Made by a program: the position numbers and the translations under genes
Assembly (NCBI GenBank): GCA_947627215.1
Contig: CANQVD010000033.1
Span: 1-40,554, forward strand
Length of the DNA stretch: 40,554 nt
DNA from: an uncultured Eisenbergiella sp.
GTDB lineage: Bacteria; Bacillota; Clostridia; Lachnospirales; Lachnospiraceae
Direction: 5' to 3'
Part shown: piece after piece, positions 77 to 40,419 of the stretch
Position numbering within the stretch: position 1 is the first letter of the stretch
How the letters are laid out: each line of letters begins with the position of its first letter
The notes under the pieces: model-generated
What the model was told of the DNA's origin: nothing
What the model saw: only the letters and a program-made list of their open reading frames with translations
Database searches by the model: none

Positions 77-77
77 G

Positions 78-5363: not shown

Positions 5364-5624
5364 GCCGCCCCGGCGGGAAACTGGGACCGGGCCGTTTTGC
5401 CGGGGGCGAACAGAAGCGGCATGGCCAGCGGGCAGACATATGTTTTCTTCGGACACGCTCTCGCTCGGATAAAAACACAGCGGTACATAACGCCGCAAAG
5501 GACGCGGCGTAAGTACCGGTGTTTTTATACGGTCCGAAGGAATAACATATGTCTGCCCGCTGGCCATGCCGCTTCTGTTCGCCCCCGGCAAAACGGCCCG
5601 GTCCCAGTTTCCCGATGGGGCGGC
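5364..5624. repeat. Long palindrome 1 (71-bp perfect arms) between convergent genes
   Basis: Arms 5374-5444 and 5544-5614 are perfect inverted repeats of 71 bp. Pairing continues outward with GCCGCCCC/GGGGCGGC after a 2-bp mismatch. The 99-bp centre folds again into ATAAAAACAC/GTGTTTTTAT (5469-5478 with 5519-5528), CGGTAC/GTACCG (5481-5486 with 5513-5518) and ACGCCGC/GCGGCGT (5490-5496 with 5504-5510). The whole interval from the DUF5721 stop to the spoVAE stop is taken up by this structure, so it would end or shape transcripts from both sides. Its core is shared with the palindrome at 22409-22641. Confidence 0.95.
5454..5526 (+). other. Conserved bulged-stem core, copy 1
   Basis: The segment CACGCTCTCGCT, five variable bases, then AAAAACACAGCGGTAC (5454-5486) aligns without gaps to 22486-22518. 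Its partner GTACCGGTGTTTTT (5513-5526) aligns to 22543-22556. AG at 5479-5480 is an unpaired bulge in both copies. The two stem differences between the copies are compensatory (A-T to G-C, and A-T to T-A). This suggests a selected structure. I do not recognise the family. Confidence 0.75.
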
Positions 5625-5641
5625 GGCCTTTTGCGAGAGGG

Positions 5642-5998
5642 CTATTTTTTCATTTTGGGGTTGAAGATCAGGCTGGCCAGATAGCCGAAAATGAGTGCCG
5701 CGGAGGTGCCCACCGCGCCGGCCCGAAAGCCCCCGGTGAACAGCCCCAGAAACCCCTGCTCGTCTACCGCCTCCTTTACGCCCCTGACGAGGAGATTCCC
5801 AAAGCCCAGAAGCGGAACGCTGGCCCCGGCCCCCGCGTATTCCGCGAAAGGCTCATACAGCCCCAGAGCGCCCAGCACCGCGCCGGTACACACCAGAAGC
5901 ACCATGATCCGGCCCGGCATCAGCTTCGTTTTTTCCATCAGAATCTGGACAAGGGCGCAGATCAGACCGCCCACCCAAAAAGCGTTGAAATAATCCAT
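5642..5998 (-). CDS. spoVAE: Stage V sporulation protein AE (SpoVAE)
   Basis: This 118-residue integral membrane protein has helices at about 5-22, 31-50, 62-80 (rich in G and A) and 90-112. The sequence from MDYFNAFWVGG through the motif MPGRIMV and the GFGNLLVRGVKEAV segment is typical of SpoVAE, part of the inner-membrane channel that moves dipicolinic acid into the forespore. The start at 5998 is chosen because AAGGAGG ends eight bases upstream; the frame is open further but includes that ribosome binding site. spoVAC and spoVAD, usually adjacent, are not in the window, so this copy is isolated. Palindrome 1 begins 17 bp after its stop codon. Confidence 0.9.
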   Translation of the reverse strand: MDYFNAFWVGGLICALVQILMEKTKLMPGRIMVLLVCTGAVLGALGLYEPFAEYAGAGASVPLLGFGNLLVRGVKEAVDEQGFLGLFTGGFRAGAVGTSAALIFGYLASLIFNPKMKK

Positions 5999-6119
5999 TC
6001 TGAATGCCTCCTTTTTCATAGGATGTACGGCCGCTGTGCAATTTATGCCCAAATGCGCGAAGGCGTCCGCATTTTTCATCAGGAAGGACCGTGCGGACGA
6101 GCTTCTCCGCCTGACGAAA

Positions 6120-6155
6120 AAACCGGCCGTTCCCGGAAGACCGGGCGGCCGGTTT
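6120..6155 (-). terminator. Terminator of the DUF3810 gene
   Basis: The hairpin AAACCGGCCG/CGGCCGGTTT contains a further CCCGG/CCGGG pairing and is followed on the minus strand by a T run. It lies 18 bp downstream of the gene ending at 6174. Confidence 0.85.
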
Positions 6156-6173
6156 ATATACCATCTCCTGCGC

Positions 6174-7286
6174 TCAGAACAGGATCCCGTCATAATGATC
6201 CAGAAGCAGCTTCACCACACCCTCATAGCTCTGCATGCCTTCCTTCACACCGTTCATTTTCAGCGTAGCCGTCGTAACCGCGCGGGAGGCCTTTTTCACG
6301 GTCTGGGTGCTCACCACCGCCTTGTCCTCCACTTTTTCCCATGCCTCCTCCGTCAGAAAAATGTTGTCCGCCCGAACCTGCTCTGAAATGGCCGGATGCC
6401 TGTTATATATTTCCGCGTCCCTTCCGATGGAGCGGAGGAACTCGTTCTCCACATAGTTCAGGACGCCCATATAACCGCTGTAACGGAAAAACGGGTCCGC
6501 AGAATCCACGCAGGCCAGATAACCGATCAGGCTGGCCTCGTCCTCCTGGATAAATCCTTTCAGATGCGCCAGCTCATGGCAGACCGTGGACGGCATATTC
6601 ACCACATACATGGTACGGTTGTAATTGGCCTCCATGGAGAAGGGGAAATAATATCCCATCATGTGCGTCTGACTCAGAAAGTCGGAGCAGAAGATCTGTT
6701 TGGGCGGCGGGTAATAGCCCCCGAGCTGATCATAGACGCTTCCCAGCCGCGTCATCTCCGCAATGGCTGTCCCATGCAGGTCTCCGTCATAAACCAGATA
6801 CCCCCGCTCGTCCCGTGCAAACCGGCCGGACATTTCGTTCAGATTTTCCACGATATAATCCCGCAGAGCCGCCAGCTCCTCCACCGTATATCCATCCGCC
6901 CGGACGGACATATATTTTTCCTCGAACGCGGAAGCATGATACTGAATGAAGCAGTTGCAGGTCATGATCCAGAAAAAAATCAGAAAGAGCCAGCAAAACA
7001 CACGCCCCAGCGCGTGAAATGCCGCCGCCGTCCACGCCCGCCGGACAAAAATCCGCAAAAGCCCGGCGATCAGCAGCGAAAACAGAAAAAGGACAGCCGC
7101 CGCAAGCATCCATTCCCCCGCACTGAACGTAAGAAGCGCCGTGACGCGGGAATATGCCGTCCCCAGAAAAGGAAAAATATGCAGGATATAGAAGTCACAG
7201 AAGGCCCTGCTGCACCACGCGGCCAGATTGACCAGCACCGCAGGCAGGAAAAGTACGATCCACAGCCGTTTTCTTTTGTTTTTCAT
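6174..7286 (-). CDS. DUF3810 membrane protein with metalloprotease-like HExxH
   Basis: This protein of about 370 residues has three N-terminal transmembrane helices (roughly 8-30, 55-78 and 95-118) and a large extracellular domain containing CHELAHLKG, an HExxH zinc-protease-like motif, followed by E-D-E-A as a possible third ligand region. This architecture fits DUF3810, for which peptidase activity is inferred only from the motif. The segment FSMEANYNRTMYVVNMPST precedes the motif, as in relatives. The ATG at 7286 is preferred because the next 14 residues lead into the first helix; an arginine-rich extension to 7457 is open but lacks a well-spaced ribosome binding site. The start is uncertain. 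Confidence 0.75.
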   Translation of the reverse strand: MKNKRKRLWIVLFLPAVLVNLAAWCSRAFCDFYILHIFPFLGTAYSRVTALLTFSAGEWMLAAAVLFLFSLLIAGLLRIFVRRAWTAAAFHALGRVFCWLFLIFFWIMTCNCFIQYHASAFEEKYMSVRADGYTVEELAALRDYIVENLNEMSGRFARDERGYLVYDGDLHGTAIAEMTRLGSVYDQLGGYYPPPKQIFCSDFLSQTHMMGYYFPFSMEANYNRTMYVVNMPSTVCHELAHLKGFIQEDEASLIGYLACVDSADPFFRYSGYMGVLNYVENEFLRSIGRDAEIYNRHPAISEQVRADNIFLTEEAWEKVEDKAVVSTQTVKKASRAVTTATLKMNGVKEGMQSYEGVVKLLLDHYDGILF

Positions 7287-7582
7287 GGCGGTTCCATTCC
7301 GGAGCGTTCCCTCAGAAGCCGTGCGCATACGCCCCGGCGGTCCGTGACGCCCCGGCACAGGCCGCCGCTCCCTCATCGCTGTCCTTATCATACCATGAAC
7401 CTGCGGTTCAGGGTCGCCGCTTACCGCTCGCCGAATGAACAGGTTCATTCTCCTCATTAATGTTTATTATACCACAGGCCCGCTCCGACCGTCCTGAATA
7501 AAATATGAACAAATTGAAAACAGGGCTGACACTTTTTCCCATTCGAACGATCCCGGGTCCGAAACGCAAAAAGACGCAAAAA
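7287..7582. other. Intergenic region upstream of the DUF3810 gene
   Basis: No separate gene is supported here. The interval holds a TATAAT on the minus strand (7466-7471) without a convincing -35, which may drive the DUF3810 gene with a leader of about 170 nt. The part nearest groEL holds that operon's terminator. Confidence 0.4.
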
Positions 7583-7616
7583 GGCCGGGGAAAACGCATT
7601 TCGGTTTTCCCCGGCC
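7583..7616 (-). terminator. groESL terminator
   Basis: A 13-bp perfect stem (GGCCGGGGAAAAC/GTTTTCCCCGGCC) is followed on the minus strand by TTTTTGCGTCTTTTT, 20 bp after the groEL stop codon. Confidence 0.92.
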
Positions 7617-7636
7617 GCCTTCCATCCGGAAAAGGA

Positions 7637-9593
<1,957 letters not shown>

Positions 9594-9635
9594 GATAAAT
9601 GCCTCCTTATATCCGAGATTTGCTTTCTTTTGTTG

Positions 9636-9662
9636 TTAGCACTCAACTTTGTCGAGTGCTAA
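9636..9662. promoter_or_regulatory. CIRCE operator (HrcA binding site)
   Basis: TTAGCACTC, nine bases, GAGTGCTAA is an exact match to the CIRCE consensus. It lies just downstream of the groES -10 box, where HrcA binding would block transcription until heat or misfolded protein inactivates HrcA. hrcA itself is not in the window. Confidence 0.98.
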
Positions 9663-9673
9663 ACACTATCTGT

Positions 9674-9702
9674 ATATTATGAGTCTTTTCCTCAACTTGC
9701 AA
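9674..9702 (-). promoter_or_regulatory. groESL promoter
   Basis: On the minus strand, TTGCAA (9697-9702), a 17-bp spacer and TAATAT (9674-9679) form a sigma-A promoter placed directly upstream of CIRCE. The rest of the 9703-9927 interval is AT-rich and shows no gene apart from a hairpin at 9848-9872. Confidence 0.7.
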
Positions 9703-9847
9703 CACGAAATAGCTCCGCTGTCCTGTCAAAAAGTCCCAATATCTTTTGTTTTCTCGTTTTTTCTCCCGTTTTCTTATTGAACCCTAAAAAGTTGGATTTC
9801 ATATTTTTTTTAGATTTTATTCATCCGGCAGGATACTGAGCGTCTGA

Positions 9848-9872
9848 AATGCCGGATTGCGCCGACGGCATT
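9848..9872 (-). terminator. Possible terminator of the glycosyltransferase gene
   Basis: A 7-bp stem (AATGCCG/CGGCATT) with an 11-nt loop lies 55 bp downstream of the stop at 9928. Only a weak T stretch follows, so efficiency is doubtful. Confidence 0.35.
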
Positions 9873-9927
9873 GCTTCTATAAAATACGCGCCCTTTTCGG
9901 ATCGCGATACTTTGGATCAGTCAGCAA

Positions 9928-11700
9928 TCACCTGTTGACAGCAATTTGCCGTTCCTGCAAAAATTCTTCAAAACCAACAGACAACTGGTCCTGAACTACC
10001 GGTTCCTGCGTGTATCTGTTAAACACTCCCTCATCATCCTTTCGTGCAAAAAATTTTGCAAAAATATCTGTCCCCGATACTGCGCATATTAAAATTCCGC
10101 AAAAACAAACCAGCGCTATTTTTTTACGATATGCTTTTCTTTTTAATAATACAAAATACCATTCCCGATATCCCCAGACACCAAGCGGGAGCAACAGCAA
10201 AAAATAGGGCACCGCATATATATTATCCGCTTCCCAAAACAGATGAAACGTAAATCCCCCAATAAAAATCAAGGGCAACAGGATTTCTTCCCATGAACTT
10301 TTTCTGATCCGAAGAACTGCATACAGCAGACTTCCTGCCAAAATCCATGTTTGAACTAAATTTACAAAACCAATATATATTGCTCTTGCTCTCTCTCCAT
10401 ACAGAAGCCAATCCAGAGAATTCGTTCCGTAACTTCGGCCAAGAATGCGCAATGATGAAAAGGTCGGATTATTCCACTGCGATGCGATTTTTTTCACAAA
10501 GAACCCTACCGTCGCTTTCATATTTGTCGATGCATTTTTAAAAAAATGAACAATCTGCGTATTCGAGATTTCCTTTGCCATTTCATAATCGTAATGGCTT
10601 TCCGTATATACCCGGTTATTAAATCCGTTATACCATCCCGGAGCCGCTTTCCCATCTTCAAGCCCCATGGCCACCCAGGCTACCATGGGGGTTCCATCGA
10701 TCGGCTCACCATCATTCAAATATGTAAGAAATCGCATACTTCCGACCGATTCAAGCCAACAGCAAACAGACATTATTACGGTAAAAATGATTCCGGCGTA
10801 TACTGTCTTTTTATTCTTTCCGACATTTTTTATCACACTGCCTCCTATATAAATTACAATTCCGATATAGAAGATCAGATAATTTGATTTTACAAAAACC
10901 GCTGCCGCCATGCAGAATCCGCCTAAAAGCGGCAAATACCATTTATAGTTTTTTAAATACAATATTGCAAAATAGCATGCTGCAAGCGCAAAAAAGAGCC
11001 CGACCACATTCCCGTACAGAAACACGGCGTAAAACAGATATGGCAGAAAAAGTGCCGCTGCAATCAGCGCAGCATTTCCCAGTTTTTTATTTTCACCGGT
11101 CAGCCGTCCCAGAATCTTCGCCAGCAAAATATAAGAGAATACGATTAACAATATATTGACCAATTGAAATGCGGTTATATTTAAGCTCCCGAATAAATAA
11201 GACAATATCCAATAATATACAATCACTCCTATTTGAAATGGCCACAAATAAACATAGCCTCCCGGCTTCAAATCCGTAAAATCACCCGCCATAAATGCTG
11301 CTGCATCCTCTATCACATGCTGCTGATCCGTGCTTGGATAATATTGTCCTGCGAGAACGATATAACCGGCTATGAGCACGGAAATACATAAAGCCCCCAC
11401 CCCAACTGCCTTAGAAAGCTTCAGAATCGAATCTTTCCTTTTTCCGAGTATCAATAAGAAACAGGAAAAAAGAAGAAAGACGATGATATGCGGAATCGGA
11501 TTGTCATCCATATAAAACGTATGTTCCCAATTAAACTCAATATCTCCTGCCAAAGTGGAATATTGGATCGCTCCCAAATAACAGGTGCTGAATATGCTTG
11601 CTATGAATAAATATCCAATTATAACCAAAAACAAAAGCCAGATCGCTTTCTGAAATATATACATCATTTTATCTCTCACTTTACATCTCCCTTTATCCAT
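9928..11700 (-). CDS. GT-C fold membrane glycosyltransferase (GT39/PMT_2-like)
   Basis: This 590-residue protein has an estimated 11-13 transmembrane helices. Its first long extracellular loop contains the acidic segment YYPSTDQQHVIEDAA followed by a GDF...GGYVYLWPFQ segment, the pattern of lipid-phosphate-sugar-dependent glycosyltransferases of the PMT_2/ArnT type. It would move a sugar from a polyprenyl carrier onto a cell-surface acceptor; donor and acceptor are unknown. The ATG at 11700 follows GGGAGG; a later ATG pair is a possible alternative. The gene is conspicuously AT-rich compared with all neighbours, and a GH2 hydrolase lies 65 bp upstream on the same strand. Both points suggest acquisition by transfer. 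Confidence 0.75.
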   Translation of the reverse strand: MDKGRCKVRDKMMYIFQKAIWLLFLVIIGYLFIASIFSTCYLGAIQYSTLAGDIEFNWEHTFYMDDNPIPHIIVFLLFSCFLLILGKRKDSILKLSKAVGVGALCISVLIAGYIVLAGQYYPSTDQQHVIEDAAAFMAGDFTDLKPGGYVYLWPFQIGVIVYYWILSYLFGSLNITAFQLVNILLIVFSYILLAKILGRLTGENKKLGNAALIAAALFLPYLFYAVFLYGNVVGLFFALAACYFAILYLKNYKWYLPLLGGFCMAAAVFVKSNYLIFYIGIVIYIGGSVIKNVGKNKKTVYAGIIFTVIMSVCCWLESVGSMRFLTYLNDGEPIDGTPMVAWVAMGLEDGKAAPGWYNGFNNRVYTESHYDYEMAKEISNTQIVHFFKNASTNMKATVGFFVKKIASQWNNPTFSSLRILGRSYGTNSLDWLLYGERARAIYIGFVNLVQTWILAGSLLYAVLRIRKSSWEEILLPLIFIGGFTFHLFWEADNIYAVPYFLLLLPLGVWGYREWYFVLLKRKAYRKKIALVCFCGILICAVSGTDIFAKFFARKDDEGVFNRYTQEPVVQDQLSVGFEEFLQERQIAVNR

Positions 11701-11765
11701 ACCTGAAAACCTCCCCCGAATCCGTTTTTTCCGGCTTTTGCCTGATATCAATCAGACGGCATCCT

Positions 11766-13412
11766 TCACCAACGGAAAATCTGCCGGACGGTTTCAAACG
11801 CCAGCTTTCGCTGCCGGTTCCCATCCACGACGCCCTTGTTATTCTTACAGCCGGGCCTCCCGTAAAAATTCTCGTCCGGCACGCGGCCGTCGCAGAACTG
11901 CCAGATGAACAGGCCGCTCGCCGGTCCGAAGGAGAGCACGCCCTCCAACTGCTCCCTTAAAATATCGCTCTGCCTCTCTTCCGACCATTTGGGCCGATGC
12001 GCGGCATGATAACCGCTGATGCCTCCGGCCCCGATCTCGCTGACGAGCAGCGGCTTCCCGGCCCCGCCCGCAGTCTGGATCCACCCGTATTCTTTTTCCA
12101 GGCATTCCCTCACCGGTTCTTCATGATACCAGCCCGGATAGAGATTGACCGACACGATATCGCAAAGATCCAGACAGATATCGGTAAAATGGCGGCAGGT
12201 AGCGGAAGTGAGCGGCCTGCTCCCATCCAGGCTGCGCAGCTTATCATACTGCTCCCGGTACACCGTTCTTCCGTATGCGGTATCGCTGGCGCATTCATTT
12301 AAGATGCCCCAGACGAAGATCGAGGGATGGTTGTAATGATTTTCCACCATCTCTTCCAGACAGTCCAGGCTTTGTCTGCGGAAATCCGGATGCCTCATCT
12401 GCTCCTCGCTCAGTCCCCTGGCATGCCCTTCCTCCCAGACCAGGATTCCTTTTTCATCACACAGGTCCAGAAATCTTTCATCATTGGGATAATGGCAGGT
12501 GCGCACGGCGTTTGCGCCCATCGCCTCCATGAGCCGCAAATCCTGATCCATCGCCTCCACCGGCAGCGCACACCCGAACTGCGCATGCTCCTCATGCCGG
12601 TTAAAGCCCCTGATCGCCAGCGGCTTCTCATTGAAATAGATCCGATCCTGCCTGACCGTGATCTCCCGAAACCCGATTCTGTCGATCAGATCGTCCTTCG
12701 CCGTCCCTCCCTGCTCCAGCAGCGCCTGTATCCGGTACAGCTTCGGCACCTCCGGCTCATAGGTCTCCGCATCAGGGAACTGCAGTTCCTCCTCCCACAC
12801 CGTTTCCCCGGGTTCCATTGCAAGCTCCGCCCGGCAGATGAGATCGTCCTCCAGGCGGATGCACAGAACATTCCACTGCGTCTCATCCGTCAGGTTTTCC
12901 ATCCATACCCGTACAACCGCCGTCCAGATCCCATGCTTTCTGGCAGGCGTCACATGAATCCGCTTCACCCAGCAGTCGCCCAGCGTTTCCGCTGTCACCG
13001 GACGGCTGATCCCTCCATAATTATAATAATCGTTCACCACATGCAGAGAGGAATGCGGGTGGCAGGAATTATCCGCCGTCACGCGCAGCATATGCCTGCC
13101 CCGTCCGACATGCTTTACGACGAAATCAAACGGCGTATAGGCATTATAATGAGTCCCGATGCTTCTTCCGTCCAGAAAAACCTCCGCAGTGTGGCTGACG
13201 CCCTTAAAGCAGAAGCGTATGTTTCCTTCCAGAAAAACTTCTTTTTCAAATACACTTTTCCCCCGGTAATTCTCATAACCGGGATAGGTTTCCACACAGC
13301 TCGGCACCGCCACGCTCCGCCGGTCCGCCGGATCGGTTTCCGGATAAAAGGTCCACACACCGTCCAGATCCTTCGTTTTCCGAACCTCATGCGTTTCAAA
13401 AAGACGTTCCAT
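11766..13412 (-). CDS. Glycoside hydrolase family 2, probable beta-glucuronidase
   Basis: This 548-residue protein has the GH2 order: N-terminal jelly-roll sugar-binding domain (about 15-145), immunoglobulin-like domain (about 148-255) and TIM barrel (about 258-548). The acid/base Glu373 lies in ILNECAS and the nucleophile Glu459 in VSEIGAGG. NLYPGWY (423-429) resembles the NRYYGWY of E. coli GusA, and NNKG (524-527) fits the N-x-K-G motif that recognises the glucuronate carboxylate. The activity is therefore more likely glucuronidase than galactosidase. There is no signal peptide, so it is cytoplasmic. It is slightly shorter than GusA (603 residues). The ATG follows GGGAGG. It is grouped with the AT-rich glycosyltransferase; no transporter or GntR/TetR regulator is adjacent. 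Confidence 0.8.
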   Translation of the reverse strand: MERLFETHEVRKTKDLDGVWTFYPETDPADRRSVAVPSCVETYPGYENYRGKSVFEKEVFLEGNIRFCFKGVSHTAEVFLDGRSIGTHYNAYTPFDFVVKHVGRGRHMLRVTADNSCHPHSSLHVVNDYYNYGGISRPVTAETLGDCWVKRIHVTPARKHGIWTAVVRVWMENLTDETQWNVLCIRLEDDLICRAELAMEPGETVWEEELQFPDAETYEPEVPKLYRIQALLEQGGTAKDDLIDRIGFREITVRQDRIYFNEKPLAIRGFNRHEEHAQFGCALPVEAMDQDLRLMEAMGANAVRTCHYPNDERFLDLCDEKGILVWEEGHARGLSEEQMRHPDFRRQSLDCLEEMVENHYNHPSIFVWGILNECASDTAYGRTVYREQYDKLRSLDGSRPLTSATCRHFTDICLDLCDIVSVNLYPGWYHEEPVRECLEKEYGWIQTAGGAGKPLLVSEIGAGGISGYHAAHRPKWSEERQSDILREQLEGVLSFGPASGLFIWQFCDGRVPDENFYGRPGCKNNKGVVDGNRQRKLAFETVRQIFRW

Positions 13413-13486
13413 CCTCCTATCCTCCCATCAACGCCGCAGGCACCGGCAGAGCAGACAGTCCCGTTTGCCGCATCCGATGAGACTGC

Positions 13487-13525
13487 GAAAAAAACTCCAC
13501 CCGTCCGTTTCCGGAACAGGTGGAG
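13487..13525 (-). terminator. efp terminator
   Basis: CTCCACC/GGTGGAG with an inner GTTCCG/CGGAC pairing is followed on the minus strand by eight Ts (13487-13494). It lies 73 bp downstream of efp. It separates efp from the GH2 gene, so the latter should have its own promoter in 13413-13486, where I see none that is convincing. Confidence 0.85.
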
Positions 13526-13598
13526 CTGTATAAATGTCTGACGAATAAGACGGATCCCCGGGCCGCAGGGTCCGGGCCGCCCCTTCGCGCGTTCCGGT

Positions 13599-14156
13599 TC
13601 AGACTCTGGACAGATACTCGCCGGTACGGGTATCGATCTTGATCACATCGCCCTCGTTGACGAACAGCGGCACATAGACCTGTGCGCCGGTCTCCACGAT
13701 CGCGGGCTTATTGGCGCCGGTCGCCGTATCGCCCTTGAAGCCGGGCTCCGTAGAGGTGATGGCCAACTCCACGAACAGCGGCGGCTCTACCGCGAAAACG
13801 CTGCCGTTGTGAGAACAGATGCGGCACGTCTCATTCTCCTTGACAAACTTGAGCGCATCGCCGATGGTATCCTTATTCAGAGAAAGCTGATCGTAAGTCT
13901 CCATATCCATGAAGGTGTACAGATCGCCGTCGTTGTACAGATACTGCATATCCCTTCTGTCGATGTGCGCCGTAGGGCATTTCTCGGTGGGGCGGAACGT
14001 GCGCTCCACCACGCCGCCGTTCTTGATGTTCTTTAACTTCGTCCTGACAAACGCCGCGCCCTTGCCGGGCTTTACATGCTGAAATTCAATGATCTGATAG
14101 ACATTGCCTTCGTATTCGATCGTCACGCCATTTCTGAAATCGCCTGCAGAAATCAT
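13599..14156 (-). CDS. efp: Translation elongation factor P
   Basis: EF-P relieves ribosome stalling at consecutive prolines. The protein is 185 residues with the three usual beta-barrel (OB-like) domains. The tip loop reads KPGKGAAF; the lysine in PGKG is the residue that carries a modification in many bacteria. The C-terminal [17 protein letters not shown] is typical. The ATG at 14156 is chosen over the upstream one at 14177 because AGGAGG lies nine bases before it and homologues begin at MISAGDF. Confidence 0.97.
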
Positions 14157-14200
14157 ATCAAAAGTCCTCCTAATCAAATGTCGCGTATGAATCTGCTACA

Positions 14201-14229
14201 AGTGTATCCTATACGGCGCTATTTTTCAA
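14201..14229 (-). promoter_or_regulatory. efp promoter
   Basis: On the minus strand, TTGAAA (14224-14229), a 17-bp spacer and TACACT (14201-14206) form a good sigma-A promoter about 45 bp upstream of the efp start codon. Confidence 0.6.
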
Positions 14230-14269
14230 CAACTTTTTTTCAAAAATGGCGGATTCACGGCCGCGGGCC

Positions 14270-15757: not shown

Positions 15758-15761
15758 CTGT

Positions 15762-16439
15762 TTACGCCTCGAATTTATATCCCATGCCCCAGATCGTCCG
15801 GATCATGTCGCCCTTTTCTCCCAGCTTGCTGCGCAGCTTTTTGACATGCGTATCGATCGTCCGGGCGTCTCCAAAATAATCGTAATTCCATACGTTGTTG
15901 AGAATCTTTTCCCGGGAAAGGGCCAGTCCCCTGTTTTCCATGAAATAGGCGAGCAGCTCAAATTCCTTATAGCTCAGCTCCACATTCTGCCCGCCGATGG
16001 TGACCAGATGGGCCGCCTTGTCCAGGCGGATGCCGCCCGCCTCCAGGATCTGATCCTCCGCCTCCGCCTGACCGGTCCGTCTGAGGATCGCCTCCACCCG
16101 GGCCACCAGGATCCGCGGAGAAAAGGGCTTGGAAATATATTCGTCCACGCCCAGCTCAAAGCCGAGAAGCTCATCCTTCTCATCTCCCCTGGCCGTCAGC
16201 ATGATGATGGGGACTCTGGAGTAGTTCCGGATCTCCCGGCACACCTGCCAGCCGTCCATCTTCGGCATCATCACATCCAGGATCACCAGCGCGATCTCCT
16301 TTTCCGCAAAAAAAACATCCAGCGCTTCGCTGCCGTCTCCGGCCTCCAGCACCTCGAAATTCTCCCGCTGCAGAAAATCCTTCACCAGTTTGCGCATCCT
16401 GCTTTCATCATCCACCACAAGCACTTTCCGCTTCTCCAT
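15762..16439 (-). CDS. OmpR-family response regulator
   Basis: This 225-residue regulator has a receiver domain (VLVVDDE at 6-12, phospho-acceptor Asp55 in VILDVMMPKMDG, switch Lys in SKPFSP) and a C-terminal winged-helix DNA-binding domain ending in IRTIWGMGYKFE. It is phosphorylated by the downstream kinase and should regulate transcription. The start at 16439 gives the canonical MEKRKVLVVDDE; the frame is open to 16520, but that start nearly abuts a -10-like TATACT. There is a modest AAAGG upstream. Confidence 0.93.
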   Translation of the reverse strand: MEKRKVLVVDDESRMRKLVKDFLQRENFEVLEAGDGSEALDVFFAEKEIALVILDVMMPKMDGWQVCREIRNYSRVPIIMLTARGDEKDELLGFELGVDEYISKPFSPRILVARVEAILRRTGQAEAEDQILEAGGIRLDKAAHLVTIGGQNVELSYKEFELLAYFMENRGLALSREKILNNVWNYDYFGDARTIDTHVKKLRSKLGEKGDMIRTIWGMGYKFEA

Positions 16440-16524
16440 ATCCGTGCCGCCTTTCTCTGCGTTCCTCCTGCCGGGTTCCCTTACGCCGGACAAAAACATA
16501 CTCCCAATGTCCCTGTCCATTGAG

Positions 16525-16530
16525 AGTATA
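16525..16530 (-). promoter_or_regulatory. Likely -10 box of the two-component operon
   Basis: TATACT on the minus strand lies about 85 bp before the regulator start. No good -35 is seen at the right distance, so it may need an activator, possibly the regulator itself. Confidence 0.4.
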
Positions 16531-16623
16531 GCACGTAAATATGTTTAAATTGTGATAAACCGGAAAAAACGCCAAAAAACTTCGCTCCGCGGACGTCCTG
16601 GCCAACGGGCCGCGCCGCTTCGG

Positions 16624-17382
16624 TCAGCAATACATCACCGGCCCGCAGCAGCCCGCGCCGCCGCAGCAGAGATTGCAGATGATATTGGCAAGACAGAGCT
16701 TCCAGCAGAGGTTCCCGCCGCCGTAGGAGGGCATACCGCCATACATGGTCTGCCGTCCCGTATACCAGGTCTGTCCGGATTCCATCTGCCGGACCCAGCC
16801 GGCATACTGTGCATTCTGGGGGTCCATCGCCTGCGCCTTCCTGGCATACTCCATCGCCTGCGCGTTGTTGCCGAGCCCCTGATTGGCGAGGGAACTATAA
16901 TAATACCAGTCGGCTGTCCGCTCCGAAATGCCATCCAGCACATTCAGGGCCTCCTGGAAATGCCGGCTGTTGATATAGTTGGCCGCCGCCCGCATGTGCA
17001 CCGTATATTCGTCCTCTCCGGCGGACGCGCGCTGCCCGTAACCGGAACGGCCCCCAAAGCCGCCGCCGAAAAAATCCCCGAAGAAATCGTCGAAGGGGCC
17101 GCGGTAACCGCCATAGCCGTTCCCATAGGAGCCGCCGGAACCGTTTCCTTCATAGCCGCCCCCGGCTTCCTGACCGTAAGAAGTATAACCGCCCTCCCGC
17201 TCCTTCATGATCTGCTGGTAGGCCTGCTGGATCTCCTTGAATTTTTCCTCCGCCTGTTCCTTGTTCGGATTGTTGACATTGGCGTCGGGATGATATATGC
17301 GGCTCAGCCTTCTGTATGCTTTTTTGATTTCTTCTTCCGAGGCCCCCCGCTGTATGCCGAGGACCTGATAGGGATCACGCAT
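16624..17382 (-). CDS. J-domain protein with glycine-rich linker and cysteine-rich tail
   Basis: This 252-residue protein starts with a J domain (about 1-68, with the HPD motif in RIYHPDAN) that would stimulate a DnaK-type ATPase. A Gly/Tyr-rich linker follows (about 85-130), then a helical, TPR-like region (about 145-205; [18 protein letters not shown] and [17 protein letters not shown]). The tail has nine cysteines in the last 28 residues ([18 protein letters not shown]). There is no DnaJ zinc finger or client-binding domain, so it is not DnaJ. The tail could bind metal or insert in the membrane. The ATG at 17382 overlaps the DUF5685 gene by eight bases, indicating translational coupling. 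Confidence 0.88.
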
Positions 17383-18223
17383 TTTCTTTGCTTTCCTTTT
17401 TCCTCCGTGCCGCCTCGTATCTGCACCAGACGCCGGAATAGAGAATATTGCGCAGGATTTCCACATTTTCCAGAATGGGCAGCGTTTCAAAGGCTCGGGA
17501 GCATTCCGCCATCATCATTCGCAGCACGCCGTCCGCATAGGCCGCAAACGCCGTCTCATCCGCCATCTCCCGCCGTTTCATCAGGAGAACATTATAATTT
17601 CCGGTCCGCGCGTCCCGGTCCATATCCTCCCAGGCGTCCATCAGATAGATGAATTTGCCCAGGAAAAAGCCCATCCTGCGAAGACTTTCTTCCCATTCAT
17701 CCCGGCGGCAGGCGAAGACCTCCGCCATGATCTCCCCGAAATACCCGCTGGCCAGATCGGGATTGCGCTCCCCGTCCTCCTCGCAGCGGCGTATCTTTTC
17801 CATCAGCACGCCGATCTGCTCCGCTTTCCGGAGATATTTTGCGGCGACGGCGTCCTTCTTTTTTTGCAAAAAAGCCATGGACACCCTGCTGGCCGGGCTG
17901 TGCTCGTCATCCCAGTCGTCCGCCCGCTTGTACCAGGAGAGCAGGATGTTCATGTCCGCCGCGTAGTCCGTAAATTCGCTGCGCCGGTTCAGGTGCGGCG
18001 TAAAGGGATGTGCGATGCAGCGGGATTTTCCGGCTGCCGTTTCCGGCTCGTAGAGCCCTGTCAGAAGCAGGATCAAAAACGTCATATCGTAGCTCAGCGT
18101 CATCTGCCCGACAATGCCATAGTTTTCCTTCAGGCTGCGGCACAGACCGCAGTACCAGGACTGGTAGCAGTCGAACTCGCGAAATTTCAGCTCCGGCTTA
18201 TTGACGATCACATATCCGAACAT
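17375..18223 (-). CDS. DUF5685 family protein
   Basis: This 282-residue, mostly helical soluble protein begins with [12 protein letters not shown], followed by YCGLCRSL (two cysteines), a [10 protein letters not shown] segment and, in the second half, [22 protein letters not shown]. This is the DUF5685 pattern; its function is unknown to me. The acidic D-A-W-E-D-M-D-R-D run recalls the Mg-binding aspartate motifs of helical prenyl-transferase folds, but that is only a resemblance. It lies between the zinc-ribbon gene (9 bp gap) and the J-domain gene (8 bp overlap), so the three products probably work together. Confidence 0.8.
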
Positions 18224-18232
18224 GGCGCTTCT

Positions 18233-18628
18233 TCAACTCCGTTTCACAAAGGTCGCACTGCATTTGGGACAGCGGATCTCGATCTTTCCGTGTCCCCTGG
18301 GAACGCGGATCTTCTGCCCGCAGGAAGGACACTTATAAATATGGTGGGTCTTTCGCTGTGCCAGCCTGCGCCGCCCGCCTGCCAGCCGTCTGCGCAGCCC
18401 CGCCGTCAGCGTCAGATATTTCTGATTCTCCGCATACCGTGCGGGAATGTTGCGCGAAAACATTCGGAAATAGTTACAGACCAGCACGAGCACCGCCAGC
18501 AGGAACCAGGCCCGATGGCTGGAAAACAGGGAGATCACCAGAAATGCCATGCTGACGCCGGACAGCAGCCTGCAGAGATTGTCGGCCCCGTAACGCCCCT
18601 GCATAAAACGCATAAATTTTTCTCTCAT
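18233..18628 (-). CDS. Membrane protein with C-terminal zinc ribbon
   Basis: This 131-residue protein has a hydrophobic region of one or two helices (about 27-62), a basic stretch (GLRRRLAGGRRRLAQRK) and a C-terminal zinc ribbon with CPSCGQ and CPKCSA about 20 residues apart. I do not recognise a named family. The start at 18628 is chosen because AAAGGAG lies ten bases upstream. It is the first gene of the three-gene unit with DUF5685 and the J-domain protein. Confidence 0.75.
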   Translation of the reverse strand: MREKFMRFMQGRYGADNLCRLLSGVSMAFLVISLFSSHRAWFLLAVLVLVCNYFRMFSRNIPARYAENQKYLTLTAGLRRRLAGGRRRLAQRKTHHIYKCPSCGQKIRVPRGHGKIEIRCPKCSATFVKRS

Positions 18629-18737
18629 CGCGAACAGACTCCTTTTCAACGCCTTCTTTTTCCCATTTTACGCGCTTTGTATGAAAAAGCAAGGAATTAT
18701 CCCGCAGCGAATTGTTAAAAAAGGATAAAGGAGCCGT

Positions 18738-19532
18738 TCAGTCCGTCCGCAGACCCTTTTGCCGGTCCGCAAGGATCAGCCGCCGCAGCGCCTCCACCCC
18801 GGCCCGGACCGCGCCGTCGGTATCATGTACCACAGGATTGGGAAGCCCCGCCCTTTCCCGTTCCTGATTGGCCACCGTCAGGAAAACGGAGCCGCAGCGC
18901 ACCTTCAGATAACTGGCCACCACGAACAGCGCCGCCGATTCCATCTCGGAGGCCTTGCAGCCCAGCCGCAGCCAGGCGCTCCATTTCTGCTCCAGCTCGT
19001 AATGCACCGGCATGAGCTGCGGCTCATGCTGCCCGTAGAAGGAATCCTTGCACTGTACCACGCCCACGTGACAGGGCAGGGACAGCGCGGCTGCCGCCTC
19101 CCGCAGCGCGCATACCACATCCGGATCGGCCACCGCCGGAAACTCGATGGGCGCATATTCCCGGCTGATCCCCTCCGCCCGGACGGCGCCCGTGGCGATC
19201 ACGAGGTCGCCGCTCTTCACCGCCGGATCCATGCCGCCGCAGGTCCCCACACGGATAAAGGTGTGCGCTCCCGCCTTCACCAGCTCCTCCATGGCGATGG
19301 CGGCGGAAGGGCCGCCGATGCCCGTGGATGTCACGCTGACCTTCGTCCCCTCCAGCCAGCCGTTGTATGTAAGGAATTCCCGGCTGTCCGCCACCGGAAC
19401 CGGATCCTCAAAATACCGGGCGATCTTCTCACAGCGCTTCGGATCCCCCGGCAGGATCACGTATTTTCCCACTTCACCGTCATGGATCTGCAGATGATAC
19501 TGCGTCCCCGCATCCGCATATTTCATTCCCAT
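18738..19532 (-). CDS. udp: Uridine phosphorylase-type nucleoside phosphorylase
   Basis: This 264-residue enzyme of the PNP/UDP superfamily cleaves a nucleoside with phosphate, most likely uridine to uracil and ribose 1-phosphate. [13 protein letters not shown] at the N-terminus, [16 protein letters not shown] and IRVGTCGGM bind phosphate and ribose. The C-terminal [10 protein letters not shown] holds the ribose-binding Glu. The start may be the ATG at 19532 or the one at 19526; GGGGG lies just upstream. It is the last gene of trxA-cbiG-udp, with 15-bp gaps. Confidence 0.87.
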
Positions 19533-19547
19533 ACCCCCGTTTTCCGC

Positions 19548-20570
19548 TCAGAAATGCAGCGCCGTCTTCTTTTCATAGACGGAAACCGCCCGATCCTCCT
19601 CTGTCCGGCACCGCACCAGACAGTTCCCGTCCCCGCTGCCCATCCGGGCGCACCGGTCACAGATCTGTCCGTCCTCCGGCTCCGTTTGCCGCACATCGTA
19701 TGTAAAAAAAGGCACATCCATCCAGTCGGCCAGCGCCACCAGCGCGGGCTCCTTCGCCAGCGCCGCGTCGGAATACACGGCGCAGACCCGCTCCCTGGAG
19801 AGATGGCTGTCAGCCAGCGCCCCGATCACCGTCTGCTGAAGCATCTGGGCGTCGCAGCCCTCCCGGCATGTCACGCCGACAACCAGGTTGACGGGAAACA
19901 TCCTGCATTCCTTTTCAAAATGAGGCGCCTCCCAGTCGTCCGTGACAGAGATCCCGCACTCCGGCGGGCGCCCCTCTCCGGCGTTTTCGCCCGCCATGAC
20001 GGGCCCCACGCCCACCATGCCCTCCGGCATCACACCCTCGATCGGATAATCGCTGTAGACTCCCACCGTCTGTCCGGCGGCCAGCGCCTCCGCCATCGTC
20101 TGGATACGGAAAAGATCCTGAATGAACAGCCCGTTTTTCCGGGCAAAGGCGTCCACCTCAAACCGCCTGGCCTTTTCGCTCTGAGAAAGGATGACCGGCG
20201 TCGCGCCCACCAGATCGGCCAGCCTGCGGCACCAGCCGTTCAGCCCGCGGATCCGCCCCCTGGAAAAGGGGATCAGGAACCTTCCTTCCTCATCCATCAC
20301 CACGGCGGCCGGTCCCGGCTCCCGCTCTTTCATAAAAGAGACAAACACACCCGCGACCTGTTCCAGATCTCCCAGGAACAGAAACACCTCCTGGCTGTCC
20401 CACAGATCCTCCAGAAGCAGCCGGAGGGATTTGAAGGGGATCAGACGGCGGCCCGTGACCGTGTGCCAGCTATAGCTGGCCGCCTGATGGTTTTTCGCCT
20501 GCAGGGCGGCGGTCAGCTCCAGATTTTTTTCCGCGCCGGCGCGGGTAAAGGAGATCACGCTGATTTTCAT
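19548..20570 (-). CDS. cbiG: CbiG-like cobalamin biosynthesis protein
   Basis: This 340-residue protein fits CbiG, which opens the lactone ring of cobalt-precorrin-5A in the anaerobic B12 pathway. It has the N-terminal CbiG domain (about 1-85, MKISVISFTRAGAE), the middle region (about 95-210) and the C-terminal domain (about 228-300, VNLVVGVTCREGCDAQML and ALAKEPALVALADWM). The last 35 residues add C-D-R-C-A and a further cysteine pair not usual in the family. No other cobalamin gene is nearby; it lies between trxA and udp. The assignment rests on overall pattern and is less certain than its neighbours. Confidence 0.7.
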   Translation of the reverse strand: MKISVISFTRAGAEKNLELTAALQAKNHQAASYSWHTVTGRRLIPFKSLRLLLEDLWDSQEVFLFLGDLEQVAGVFVSFMKEREPGPAAVVMDEEGRFLIPFSRGRIRGLNGWCRRLADLVGATPVILSQSEKARRFEVDAFARKNGLFIQDLFRIQTMAEALAAGQTVGVYSDYPIEGVMPEGMVGVGPVMAGENAGEGRPPECGISVTDDWEAPHFEKECRMFPVNLVVGVTCREGCDAQMLQQTVIGALADSHLSRERVCAVYSDAALAKEPALVALADWMDVPFFTYDVRQTEPEDGQICDRCARMGSGDGNCLVRCRTEEDRAVSVYEKKTALHF

Positions 20571-20585
20571 AACGCCACGCCCTTC

Positions 20586-20894
20586 CTATCTGTAAAGATC
20601 CATTCTCCGCGCCAGCTCCGCTCCGCTCTGGACGCCCACCATGCGGTCCACCTCTTTCCCGCCCTTGAAGATGATCAGCGTCGGGATATTCATGACCTGA
20701 TATTCCATCGCAAGCCCGGACTGCTCGTCCACATTCACCTTGCCGGCCTGATAGCCTTCCTCCGCCAGCTTTTCCACCGCCGGGGCCTGCATCCTGCAGG
20801 GGCCGCACCACTGAGCCCAGAAATCCACCAGCACCGGTCCCTCTGCGTTCAGCACTTCCGCTTCAAAATTGTCAGATGTGAGTATTTTCGCCAT
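20586..20894 (-). CDS. trxA: Thioredoxin
   Basis: This 102-residue thioredoxin has the redox motif WCGPC (about 30-34) in [14 protein letters not shown] and the cis-proline loop [11 protein letters not shown]. It reduces protein disulfides in the cytoplasm. The ATG follows AGGGAGG by eight bases. A TATACT on the minus strand at 20974-20979 is the likely -10. A strong GC hairpin without a T run (20932-20964) lies in the leader. It is first in the operon with cbiG and udp. Confidence 0.96.
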
Positions 20895-20931
20895 ATTCTC
20901 AGCCTCCCTTGTTCCCTGACTCCTTTTTCAC

Positions 20932-20964
20932 AGCGTTCCCGGCACGGCTGCGCCGGGGGACGCT
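20932..20964 (-). other. GC-rich hairpin in the trxA leader
   Basis: AGCGT/ACGCT and CCCGGC/GCCGGG form a stable stem-loop between the predicted transcription start and the trxA ribosome binding site. No T tract follows, so it is more likely an mRNA stabiliser or leader structure than a terminator. Confidence 0.4.
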
Positions 20965-21020
20965 GCTGCTTCTAGTATACCTGTTTTCTCTCATAAAATC
21001 CACGGTTATTTCTTCAGATT

Positions 21021-22343
21021 TCAAAGTTCTTCGCCCGGCCCGGCGATCTCCCGGCGCAGCAGCCACAGGCAGAGAAGGTTGGGCAGCGCCATACAGGCAT
21101 TGGCCAGATCCGAAAGGTTCCATACAAGCTCCAGCGACAGGACGGCCCCCAGATATACGAACACCATATAGACGGTCTGAAAAAGCTTCACACCCCGCTC
21201 CCCCCACAGATAGCGGGCCGCGCATTCCCCGTAAAAGCTCCAGCCAATGATGGTGGCGAAGGCGAACAGCACCAGGCAGAGGGACAGAAGCGCTCCGCCC
21301 GCGAAGGGCAGGCTCTCAAAGGCCACGAAGCAATAGGCGTCCTCCCCCGCCGCCAGATAGGGCGCCGGATTTTGGACCATATCGCTCAAAACGGCGAGGC
21401 CCGTGACCGCGCACATCACCAGCGTATCCCAGAAAATCCCCGTCATGGAAATGATCGCCTGCTGCCGGGGCGCGGTCCCCGCCACGACGGCCGCCGCCAT
21501 GGGCGCGGAGCCCATTCCGGCCTCGTTGGTGAAAAGCCCCTTCGCCACGCCGACGCGGATGCCCGTCATCACCGCGTATCCCGCCGCGCCGCCGATCAGG
21601 GAGCGGGAGGAAAAGGCGCCCTGAAGCACCGCCGAAACCGCCGCCGGAAGGCAGGCCGCATTTCTAGCGATCACGAACAGGCAGCCCCCCAGATAGATCA
21701 GACACATCACCGGCACCAGGCAGGTACAGACCCTGGCGGTCTTTTTCGCGCCGCCGATCAGCACGCTGCCCGCCAGCACGGCCGCCGCGATTCCCACCAG
21801 ATGCGGCGATACGGGGAGGTGCCGGGTCACCGCCGCCGTCAGGGAATGGGCCTGTACGCCGCTGCCCACGCACAGCGCCGCCAGAACGGCAAACAGGGCG
21901 AACAGCACAGCCATCCCTCTTCTGTGCAGCACATGCTCCATCACATACATGGGTCCGCCGTAAACGCTGCCGTCCGCTCTCCGGTTCCTGTACTTCGCGG
22001 AAAGAAAACACTCCGCATAGCAGGTCGCCATGCCGAGGAGTCCGCAGATCCAGCACCAGAACAGCGCTCCCGGCCCGCCGACGGCGATGGCCGCAGAGAT
22101 CCCGACGATATTTCCGGTCCCGATGGTGGCTGCCAGCGCCGTTGACAGCGCCTCCCAGGCCGAAACCCTCGGCCCTTCCTCCTTCCTGCCCGAAAAGCTC
22201 ATCCGGATCCCCTGCGGGACCTTTTTCTGCACAAAGCCCAGCCTGACCGTGAAATAGAGATGCATCCCCAGCAACAGCGCCGGCATGGGAAAGCCCCAGA
22301 GAAAATCGCAAAGCGTCCTCACCAGGCCGCTGATCCGTTCCAT
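21021..22343 (-). CDS. Sodium:alanine/glycine symporter family protein (AgcS)
   Basis: This 440-residue transporter has about 11 transmembrane helices and belongs to the alanine or glycine:cation symporter family. Typical segments are the N-terminal LWGFPMPALLLGMHLYFTVR, the substrate-site region ALAATIGTGNIVGISAAI, GGPGALFWCW, YGGPMYVMEHVL and KGLFTNEAGMGSAP. It would import a small neutral amino acid with Na+ or H+. The start at 22343 aligns with relatives and has AGGA nine bases upstream; an earlier ATG at 22364 is possible. It is divergent from glmS, with palindrome 2 between them. Confidence 0.93.
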   Translation of the reverse strand: MERISGLVRTLCDFLWGFPMPALLLGMHLYFTVRLGFVQKKVPQGIRMSFSGRKEEGPRVSAWEALSTALAATIGTGNIVGISAAIAVGGPGALFWCWICGLLGMATCYAECFLSAKYRNRRADGSVYGGPMYVMEHVLHRRGMAVLFALFAVLAALCVGSGVQAHSLTAAVTRHLPVSPHLVGIAAAVLAGSVLIGGAKKTARVCTCLVPVMCLIYLGGCLFVIARNAACLPAAVSAVLQGAFSSRSLIGGAAGYAVMTGIRVGVAKGLFTNEAGMGSAPMAAAVVAGTAPRQQAIISMTGIFWDTLVMCAVTGLAVLSDMVQNPAPYLAAGEDAYCFVAFESLPFAGGALLSLCLVLFAFATIIGWSFYGECAARYLWGERGVKLFQTVYMVFVYLGAVLSLELVWNLSDLANACMALPNLLCLWLLRREIAGPGEEL

Positions 22344-22408
22344 ATGCGCGATCCTGCCCAACATCCGTTTTCTCTGTAAAGAATATGCGCCGGAACCGGA
22401 AATAAAAC

Positions 22409-22641
22409 CGGGAGGCCCCGGGAAAAGCCGCGCGCCCCAGGCCCCTGTCCGGCCGGCGTCCGTATGGCGCGGCGCGCATGTCAGGCACGCTCCCGCTTCA
22501 TGAAAAACGCAGCGGTTCTAAGCTCGTGGAATACCTCGCCAAGAACCGGCGTTTTTCAGGAGCGCTGACATTTTGCACCGCGCCATACGGACGCCGGCCG
22601 GACAGGGGCCTGGGGCGCGCGGCTTTTCCCGGGGCCTCCCG
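22409..22641. repeat. Long palindrome 2 (64-bp perfect arms) upstream of glmS
   Basis: Arms 22409-22472 and 22578-22641 are perfect inverted repeats of 64 bp and very GC-rich. The 105-bp centre folds further: TGTCAG/CTGACA, CGCTCC/GGAGCG, TGAAAAACGC/GCGTTTTTCA and CGGTTCT/AGAACCG. Together they form one hairpin of about 230 nt in the 22344-22724 interval between divergent genes. The arms differ from those of palindrome 1, but the core is shared. The glmS promoter starts 12 bp beyond its right edge. Confidence 0.95.
22486..22556 (+). other. Conserved bulged-stem core, copy 2
   Basis: CACGCTCCCGCT, five variable bases, then AAAAACGCAGCGGTTC (22486-22518), with partner GAACCGGCGTTTTT (22543-22556), is the second copy of the core at 5454-5526. 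The AG bulge (22511-22512) is kept. Its two stem differences from copy 1 preserve pairing. Confidence 0.75.
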
Positions 22642-24552: not shown

Positions 24553-24584
24553 GCAAAAACCGGAGCTTTCGCTCCGGTTTTTGC
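24553..24584. terminator. glmS terminator (bidirectional)
   Basis: A perfect 14-bp stem (GCAAAAACCGGAGC/GCTCCGGTTTTTGC) with a TTTC loop lies just after the glmS stop. Its A and T ends let it work on both strands, serving also the convergent gene that ends at 24707. Confidence 0.9.
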
Positions 24585-24690
24585 GCTACTTCTCCATTCA
24601 CCTTGTGAATGGAGAAGGTTCCTTCCTTGCGCTACTTCTCCATTCACACTGTGAATTGAGAAGGTTCTTCCTGCGCTGCTTCTCCGGAAG
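24582..24690. repeat. Tandem hairpin repeat, about 2.4 copies
   Basis: A 44-46 bp unit beginning TGCGCTACTTCTCC occurs at 24582-24627 and 24628-24671, with a partial third copy from 24672. Each full unit is itself a hairpin (CTTCTCCATTCAC/GTGAATGGAGAAG in unit 1; one mismatch in unit 2). It lies between convergent genes and resembles REP/BIME-like intergenic repeats. Confidence 0.8.
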
Positions 24691-40370: not shown

Positions 40371-40419
40371 TATCTCTGGACTCCTTTCAGAAAGAAAAGA
40401 GAGTCCAACGCAACTATAG

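What the first reader, a model, noticed from the sequence alone, without database searches (positions are those of the whole stretch)
5454..22556. Two long palindromes share a covarying bulged core but have unrelated arms
The centres of the palindromes at 5364-5624 and 22409-22641 align without gaps over 33 nt (5454-5486 with 22486-22518) and over the 14-nt partner strand (5513-5526 with 22543-22556). Within the stem AAAAACRCAGCGGTWC/GWACCGGYGTTTTT the copies differ at two base pairs, and both differences are compensatory (A-T to G-C, A-T to T-A). The unpaired AG is kept. The 64-71 bp outer arms are perfect within each element yet different between elements. This is what a selected RNA or ssDNA structure in a dispersed family would look like. 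I know no family with this description.
Basis: partly seen in the sequence, partly recalled or inferred. Interest (0 to 1): 0.85.

Follow-up and report, generated by a model that had tools for sequence, protein, structure and literature searches.

The report
Dispersed bacterial hairpins with flipping cores
The two palindromes are copies of a repeat family found in many gut bacteria of the Lachnospiraceae: a conserved folded core at the tip of a long hairpin whose two arms appear to be copied onto each other, so that they stay matched while their sequence drifts and the core often turns round.

Summary
The two palindromes belong to a dispersed family: 68 full-length copies in this genome, matches in 99 of 250 sampled Lachnospiraceae genomes, and in 8 of 291 class-wide genomes, all 8 of that same family. 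No Rfam match at gathering score in the window.

Each copy has a conserved imperfect core at the tip of a hairpin with 46-134 bp arms (59 copies). The core is a predicted three-way junction with a mini-hairpin whose loop, on one strand, is GNRA in 58 of 59 own-genome and 28 of 30 family-wide copies. Outer arms are unrelated between copies (59% vs 57% shuffled; 92% within a copy; 51 copies). In 11 of 23 orthologous pairs the arms have diverged nearly to randomness (57%; unrelated 52%) yet stay 88% matched within each copy, while the lower core keeps 87%. In 10 of 23 pairs the core is inverted.

So arm complementarity is best explained by arm-to-arm copying (replication template switching), not by selection on a long RNA stem; only the core looks selected. 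Its function and means of spread remain unknown.

The parts
5364..5454 (+). element A, left arm (outer part locus-specific)
   Evidence: 91-nt arm pairing with 5532-5624, 89 of 91 aligned positions identical, 2 gaps; one search gives 5354-5444/5544-5634 at 93%
5455..5531 (+). element A, conserved core between the arms as aligned
   Evidence: R1 match G000:C33:5431-5555, 111.8 bits
5457..5464 (-). element A, mini-hairpin GC[TCTC]GC; on the minus strand GC-GAGA-GC (GNRA loop)
   Evidence: sequence; consensus
5471..5486 (+). element A, core stem 5' strand AAAAACACAGCGGTAC with unpaired AG at 5479-5480
5513..5526 (+). element A, core stem 3' strand GTACCGGTGTTTTT
5532..5624 (+). element A, right arm
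22409..22475 (+). element B, left outer arm
   Evidence: 67 nt, 99% complementary to 22575-22641
22476..22574 (+). element B, inner arm parts and conserved core
   Evidence: R1 match G000:C33:22462-22586, 96.6 bits
22489..22496 (-). element B, mini-hairpin GC[TCCC]GC; on the minus strand GC-GGGA-GC (GNRA loop). The DNA fold of element B alone does not show this mini-hairpin
   Evidence: sequence; consensus
22503..22518 (+). element B, core stem 5' strand AAAAACGCAGCGGTTC with unpaired AG at 22511-22512
22543..22556 (+). element B, core stem 3' strand GAACCGGCGTTTTT
22575..22641 (+). element B, right outer arm

Best explanation
Both palindromes are old copies of a Lachnospiraceae dispersed element (median length 229 bp in this genome). 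It has two parts that evolve under different rules. (1) A core of roughly 80-135 bp at the hairpin tip is conserved. Its predicted shape is an outer stem, a three-way junction bearing a 2-bp mini-hairpin with a GNRA loop on one strand, a main stem with an AG bulge and an A.A mismatch, and a variable apex. (2) The outer arms have little or no conserved sequence between copies. They drift, but a change in one arm is sooner or later copied to the other, because a nascent strand switches template between the arms during replication. The same switching turns the core round. Where genes are in tandem the elements mostly sit just behind stop codons, in either orientation. Shown by sequence comparison: the family and its range, core conservation and covariation, arm divergence between species with matching kept, a paired indel, core inversion, exchange of all or part of the core at sites that keep their arms. 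Inferred: that template switching, rather than another arm-to-arm copying process, is the agent; that selection, and not only exchange between copies, keeps the core; that some machinery recognises the core; that spread was by bursts in some lineages.
For: Family and range: 68 full copies in G000; 7 of 13 genus genomes, with 95 raw rows in G003 and 34 in the 68%-complete G002; 99 of 250 family genomes, G000 included, with 13 candidates scored per genome; 8 of 291 class genomes, all 8 of the same family. Arms: 59 copies, median 72 bp, 4141 of 4343 aligned positions complementary; over the stretch 22-60 nt out, 51 copies: 92% within a copy, 59% between copies, 57% shuffled. Orthologous pairs (22 G000 copies, 23 pairs, two related MAGs): 11 of 23 have between-species arm identity under 70% (median 57%; unrelated arms 52%, sd 7), yet left-right identity 88% and lower-core identity 87%. 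In the 14 pairs with alignable arms, 52 one-arm and 18 two-arm substitution columns and 16 and 16 indel columns; in the 9 others 26 one-arm and 128 two-arm substitution columns (the last two summed from its rows). A 7-nt indel occurs in both arms at L067/L122. Core inverted in 10 of 23 pairs and in 6 of the 14 with alignable arms. Core differs throughout at L050/L187 and in the apex at L046/L147, with arms 97% and 100% alike. Core covariation score 0.718 against 0.193 shuffled and at most 0.158 slid. GNRA loop 58 of 59 and 28 of 30, with the closing C-G pair changed to T-A in 4 of the 30. Mechanism in print: PMC8604942 abstract and passages, PMC8794818 abstract.
Against: No experiment and no reads were available; template switching is inferred from patterns. 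In the 14 alignable pairs 21 substitution and 25 indel columns (of 572) show an arm mismatch kept by both species, 14 of the 21 in one pair (L046/L147), so copying is not fast everywhere; 29 columns fit no class. The spacers inverted in the yeast paper are short (2-5 bp substitutions), ours are about 75-110 nt. The compared assemblies are short-read MAGs; the longest exact arm match is under 77 nt in all 139 elements but at least 55 nt in 16, among them one partner in two of the ten inverted pairs, so a small-k assembler could misorient some cores. Alignments of the arms (74% GC) are noisy. How a new copy gains its arms is not explained: at the empty site L127 (partner of L017) no single-arm precursor is evident by eye. 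G.U against A.C counts point to one strand in some helices and to the other in others.
Confidence: 0.72

Rival explanations
1. The whole hairpin, arms included, is selected as an RNA or ssDNA stem, and every arm change is a compensatory mutation kept by selection.
For: High pairing and covariation; the GNRA loop points to RNA on one strand; in the outermost modelled helix across the family wobble on the GNRA strand exceeds wobble on the other, 22 against 6.
Against: One-arm mismatches are common (52 columns in close pairs); a 7-nt indel occurs in both arms; aligned arm length varies 46-134; in the arms of 139 elements the mismatches are 140 G.T, 107 A.C and 146 others of 5512 aligned pairs, with the larger number on the strand opposite to the GNRA strand; helices 3 and 5 also favour that opposite strand, 17 against 3 and 21 against 8; the core turns round relative to the genes, and orientation between tandem genes is 19 to 16.
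Confidence: 0.12
2. A non-autonomous transposable element (MITE-like) whose arms are terminal inverted repeats used by a transposase.
For: Dispersed, mostly intergenic, uneven between species; arms look partly alike between four copies of one Lachnoclostridium MAG (L150, L151, L181, L182, by eye).
Against: Terminal repeats of a MITE are shared between copies, here the outer arms are unrelated; no target duplication can be defined; 8 of 9 G000 copies with a syntenic G003 site are shared, so movement looks rare; Y1 transposase PF01797 is found in G000 (5 matches) but not in G003 or G002, both rich in copies. Other transposase families were not searched.
Confidence: 0.2
3. The core is an invertible switch flipped by a site-specific recombinase.
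For: Core inverted in 10 of 23 orthologous pairs.
Against: The repeats at the flip have no conserved sequence except the inner 20 nt or so, whose two single-base bulges travel with the core; no promoter-like site in element A, and the one near element B lies outside it. No invertase gene was looked for.
Confidence: 0.08
4. As to use, the elements serve as 3' ends of mRNAs: terminator or exonuclease block.
For: In 35 copies between tandem genes the arm starts a median 12 nt after the upstream stop codon, 29 of 35 within 40 nt, and a median 118 nt before the next gene. T-runs of 4 or more just outside the arms are about twice as common as in nearby stretches, 14 of 118 against 22 of 354. Terminator-like sites lie at the edge of element A (+ strand 5625-5643) and of element B (- strand 22421-22408), but shuffles give 0.8 and 0.6 such sites.
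Against: 104 of 118 arm ends have no such T-run; element B and 7 other copies of 59 lie between divergent genes; a place behind stop codons is also where any insertion is tolerated.
Confidence: 0.3
5. Fold-back assembly artefact.
For: Many records are short-read MAGs.
Against: Matches in 99 of 250 genomes, single-contig ones included (G248, G209); orthologous arms agree between separate assemblies.
Confidence: 0.01

Closest known systems
REP/BIME, ERIC and similar intergenic palindromic repeats
   Same: Dispersed, intergenic, palindromic, no coding capacity; often behind stop codons (the last recalled).
   Different: REPs are 20-40 bp (PMC3733652, start of abstract in the listing); here long outer arms are peculiar to each locus, the conserved core has a predicted three-way junction, and a Y1 transposase is not found in two copy-rich genomes.
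Quasipalindrome correction / template switching between inverted repeats
   Same: Arms made alike and spacer inverted (PMC8604942 passages, PMC8794818 abstract).
   Different: Those papers treat short repeats or RNA genes; here a dispersed family of long-armed hairpins with a preserved core shows both.
Perfect palindromes of nematomorph mitochondria
   Same: Long arms kept identical while the sequence varies between species; template switching proposed (PMC6649704 passages).
   Different: Those lie inside mitochondrial genes; a conserved dispersed core is not mentioned in the passages seen.
Repeated msDNA-like or retron elements, integron attC sites (recalled, not searched)
   Same: Hairpins with strand-specific bulges and a variable tip.
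   Different: No reverse transcriptase or integrase was sought near the copies, so this is a lead only.

Membership tests
REP / RAYT-associated repeats | Y1 transposase (PF01797) in genomes rich in the repeat | tested here: not met
   4 of 13 genus genomes have it (G000, G007, G009, G011); G003 and the 68%-complete G002 do not
REP / RAYT-associated repeats | short palindrome with GTAG or CGTC tag | not tested
   feature from the title and abstract start of PMC3733652; the units here have a median of 229 bp
MITE | terminal inverted repeats shared between copies | tested here: not met
   (51 copies of this genome): outer arms 59% between copies, 57% shuffled; by eye partly shared in one Lachnoclostridium MAG
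MITE | target-site duplication | tested here: inconclusive
   ends cannot be defined; three sites without this element seen by eye (L127 and L140, L057's partner) are too different, and L140 holds another palindrome
Template-switch-maintained inverted repeats | changes copied from arm to arm | tested here: met
   with 21 substitution columns of shared uncorrected mismatch against it
Template-switch-maintained inverted repeats | spacer inversion | tested here: met
   10 of 23 pairs
Template-switch-maintained inverted repeats | occurs during replication, without a dedicated recombinase | not testable with these tools
   needs an experiment
Known structured RNA (Rfam 15) | match at gathering score | tested here: not met
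   0 in the window; 4 sub-threshold matches in 10 loci
Structured RNA in general | stem covariation beyond shuffles and slides | tested here: met
   but template switching could also make it
Structured RNA in general | discrete transcript | not testable with these tools
   no RNA-seq
Intrinsic terminator | U-tract after the stem | tested here: inconclusive
   T-run of 4 or more at 14 of 118 arm ends against 22 of 354 background stretches

The most novel reading that the evidence does not exclude
The three-way-junction core with its GNRA mini-hairpin is the recognition site of an undescribed Lachnospiraceae mobile or chromosome-maintenance system that acts on folded single strands; that system, not chance replication slips, copies one arm onto the other, flips and swaps cores, and builds fresh arms round each new copy. 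The second family of long palindromes with the centre TGTCTGAGCGAAGCGAGTTT would be a sister set served by the same machinery.
Probability: 0.2. Interest if true: 0.88.

Novelty: new variant of a known kind. Interest (0 to 1): 0.7.

Why it matters
It is a repeat found in about 40% of the sampled genomes of a major family of gut bacteria, with no Rfam match at gathering score where tested. It gives dozens of natural replicates per genome of concerted evolution between hairpin arms and of core inversion, so the strength of replication template switching in wild bacteria can be measured. It also warns that strong covariation in a long stem is not proof of selection on RNA. If the core binds a machinery, that machinery is not known to me.

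Tried and rejected
Loss of SbcCD as the reason that long palindromes persist: SbcD (TIGR00619) is found in 12 of 13 genus genomes, G000, G002 and G003 among them. REP-type Y1 transposase: rejected as a general partner. Carriage by viruses or plasmids: 0 matches in viral contigs (one pattern), plasmids and phages (one query element each); weak tests. A partner gene beside a lone copy: the ORFs round the one copy listed for G208 look like housekeeping genes by eye; three other stretches fetched (L301, L302, L303) were not analysed. RNA strand by G.U against A.C counts: mixed. Rfam at lax threshold: four sub-threshold matches in ten loci, two of them microRNA-precursor families lying on the hairpin, one Clostridiales-1 partly on it, one lncRNA region elsewhere. 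Arms as copies of other elements: with the whole window elements as queries the listed matches cover the core and inner arms, none the whole of the outer arms of either (40 candidates scored each). Closer pairs between the two related MAGs: only one pair could be compared. My first count of the GNRA loop (159 of 161 and 50 of 53) is withdrawn, because search patterns had partly fixed those bases; one search counts copies found by BLAST, or by the covariance model, which itself scores sequence. Co-occurrence with candidate genes over many genomes was not done.

Literature searches. None of the titles and abstract starts listed describes this family; most subscription papers and all preprints are missing from the library. 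Seen: PMC8794818 outline with abstract; PMC8604942 outline with abstract, and passages; PMC6649704, PMC13155455 and PMC12306157 passages; the rest in listings only. In PMC13155455 (repeats with spacers up to 8 bp) and PMC12306157 a word search finds no Lachnospiraceae.
Full report
WHAT IS THERE. The window lies in a genome, G000 (4.04 Mb in 108 contigs; window = contig 33), whose genus also holds MAGs named Eisenbergiella, a Lachnospiraceae genus: G003 and G002 have the contig lengths of CANRMT01 and CANQTI01.

FAMILY. BLAST with the elements lists 39 and 38 further places. Of 63 anchored places printed, one was a duplicate, one the opposite strand of element A and two were truncated; 59 complete copies were measured. 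A covariance model made from them (R1) lists 68 full copies in G000 (81 rows less 13 opposite-strand self hits; 150 of 1859 candidates scored). In the genus 7 of 13 genomes have matches. In the family sample 99 of 250 match, G000 among them, with only 13 candidates scored per genome, so this is a floor. In the class sample 8 of 291 match, all 8 of the same family; the listed part shows 3 more family members without a match, and 263 genomes without a match are not listed. No match in viral contigs, plasmids or phages with one query each.

TWO PARTS. The core reads about GACACGCTCTCGCTC-n-GAAAAACGCAGCGGTACTAAGCTCG ... CCTCGCTAAGTnCCGGCGTTTTTC-an-GGTC over the family. It is predicted to fold as an outer stem, a main stem with an AG bulge and an A.A mismatch, a variable apex, and on the 5' side a 2-bp mini-hairpin GC[TYNC]GC, so a three-way junction (DNA folds of single copies show the mini-hairpin in 7 of the 8 strands folded, not in element B). 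Read on the other strand the loop is GNRA: 58 of 59 in the own genome (copies found by BLAST) and 28 of 30 family-wide (found by the covariance model), with the closing C-G pair changed to T-A in 4 of the 30. That GNRA loops are typical of RNA, and that DNA mini-hairpins such as d(GCGAAGC) are unusually stable, is recalled. In most own-genome copies two single-base bulges in the inner right arm are also kept, and they travel with the core. The outer arms by contrast are unrelated between copies: 92% identity within a copy, 59% between, 57% shuffled (51 copies). By eye some arms share a faint GCAGAAAGCGCCGCC-like stretch. Median aligned arm 72, range 46-134, 4141 of 4343 positions complementary (59 copies).

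HOW THE ARMS EVOLVE. Loci of G000 were compared with loci of two related MAGs that a core pattern had picked. Of 26 locus pairs, 2 lack this element on the other side (one of these, L140, holds another palindrome) and 1 was set aside because two elements confound it; 23 pairs, with 22 G000 copies, remain. In 11 of them the arms differ between species almost as much as unrelated arms do (57%; unrelated 52%), but in each species left still matches right (88%), and the lower core keeps 87%. At glmS (element B) the inner signature is shared with G003 and G002 while the outer arms of G000 are quite different (by eye). In the 14 pairs with alignable arms, of 572 columns 52 show a substitution in one arm and 18 in both, 16 and 16 an indel, 21 and 25 (indel) a mismatch that both species share, and 29 fit no class. 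In the 9 other pairs one-arm substitution columns sum to 26 and two-arm ones to 128. A 7-nt indel occurs in both arms at L067/L122. So a change seems to arise in one arm and to be copied to the other later.

THE CORE TURNS ROUND AND IS EXCHANGED. In 10 of 23 pairs the core is inverted relative to the flanks, including 6 of the 14 whose arms still align, so there it turned in place. An 800-kb sample of G003, the same MAG as CANRMT01, gave 9 syntenic sites: 8 occupied (4 same, 4 inverted), of which 6 were already in the first set, and 1 empty. At L050/L187 the arms are 97% alike but the core differs throughout; at L046/L147 they are 100% alike and the apex differs. Exact arm matches are under 77 nt in all 139 elements and at least 55 nt in 16, including one partner in two of the inverted pairs, so misassembly is unlikely to explain most inversions for assemblers with large k.

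SURROUNDINGS. By a simple codon-usage gene caller, which set aside short ORFs lying mostly inside an element, 35 of 59 copies lie between tandem genes, 12 between convergent and 8 between divergent ones, 4 undecided; 14 overlap a predicted gene by 2-76 nt. In the tandem cases the arm starts a median 12 nt behind the upstream stop codon and 118 nt before the next gene; orientation is 19 to 16. T-runs just outside the arms are about twice as common as nearby, but most ends have none.

A SECOND FAMILY. In 801 kb of fetched sequence 126 long palindromes were found (one locus counted twice): 117 filed by script as this family, 6 more by eye among the 9 printed, and 3 with another centre, TGTCTGAGCGAAGCGAGTTT. 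That motif occurs 13 times in G000, 18 in G003, 5 in G002; 18 of 19 printed copies have arms of 91-157 aligned positions, one (L294) 25. At one site G000 has the first family (L022) and G003 the second (L140).

MECHANISM. Template switching between inverted repeats is reported to make arms alike and to invert the spacer (PMC8604942, passages; PMC8794818, abstract), and was proposed for nematomorph mitochondrial palindromes (PMC6649704, passages). It explains arms and inversion together. It should also erase the core's bulges; that these persist over the family argues for selection on the core. Shown: patterns. Inferred: agent, selection, machinery. Unknown: how a new copy gains its arms, how it spreads, what it does.

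VERDICT. Observation confirmed; interpretation partly supported; new variant of the known kind 'dispersed intergenic palindromic repeat', with an unusual division into a preserved core and freely drifting, mutually copied arms.

Noticed in passing
L304-L314, L140:4793-5042, L174:7081-7328, L034:1655-1868: A second dispersed family of long palindromes with the centre TGTCTGAGCGAAGCGAGTTT (contains GCGAAGC); 13 motif hits in G000, 18 in G003, 5 in G002, 1 each in G004, G005, G011.
   Followed up: partly
window 1-80 and 40474-40553: The two contig ends are an 80-bp inverted repeat, 99% complementary; perhaps the contig stops in a repeat, next to an ORF that looks like an integrase (39171-40448, by eye).
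   Followed up: no
window 24581-24667: Two 41-nt tandem copies (93%), each a small palindrome, just behind the glmS stop codon.
   Followed up: no
L032, L036, L046, L070: About 19 extra nt like GAGGTGCGAAGCAGCTCTT near the core apex; absent in L147, orthologue of L046, and in L159, orthologue of L032.
   Followed up: no
L035:468 and L068:209: Truncated copies lacking the right half; downstream of the L068 copy lies what looks by eye like a tRNA gene (ARAGORN not run).
   Followed up: no
L150, L151, L181, L182: In one Lachnoclostridium MAG the arms of different copies are still partly alike by eye, as after a recent burst.
   Followed up: no
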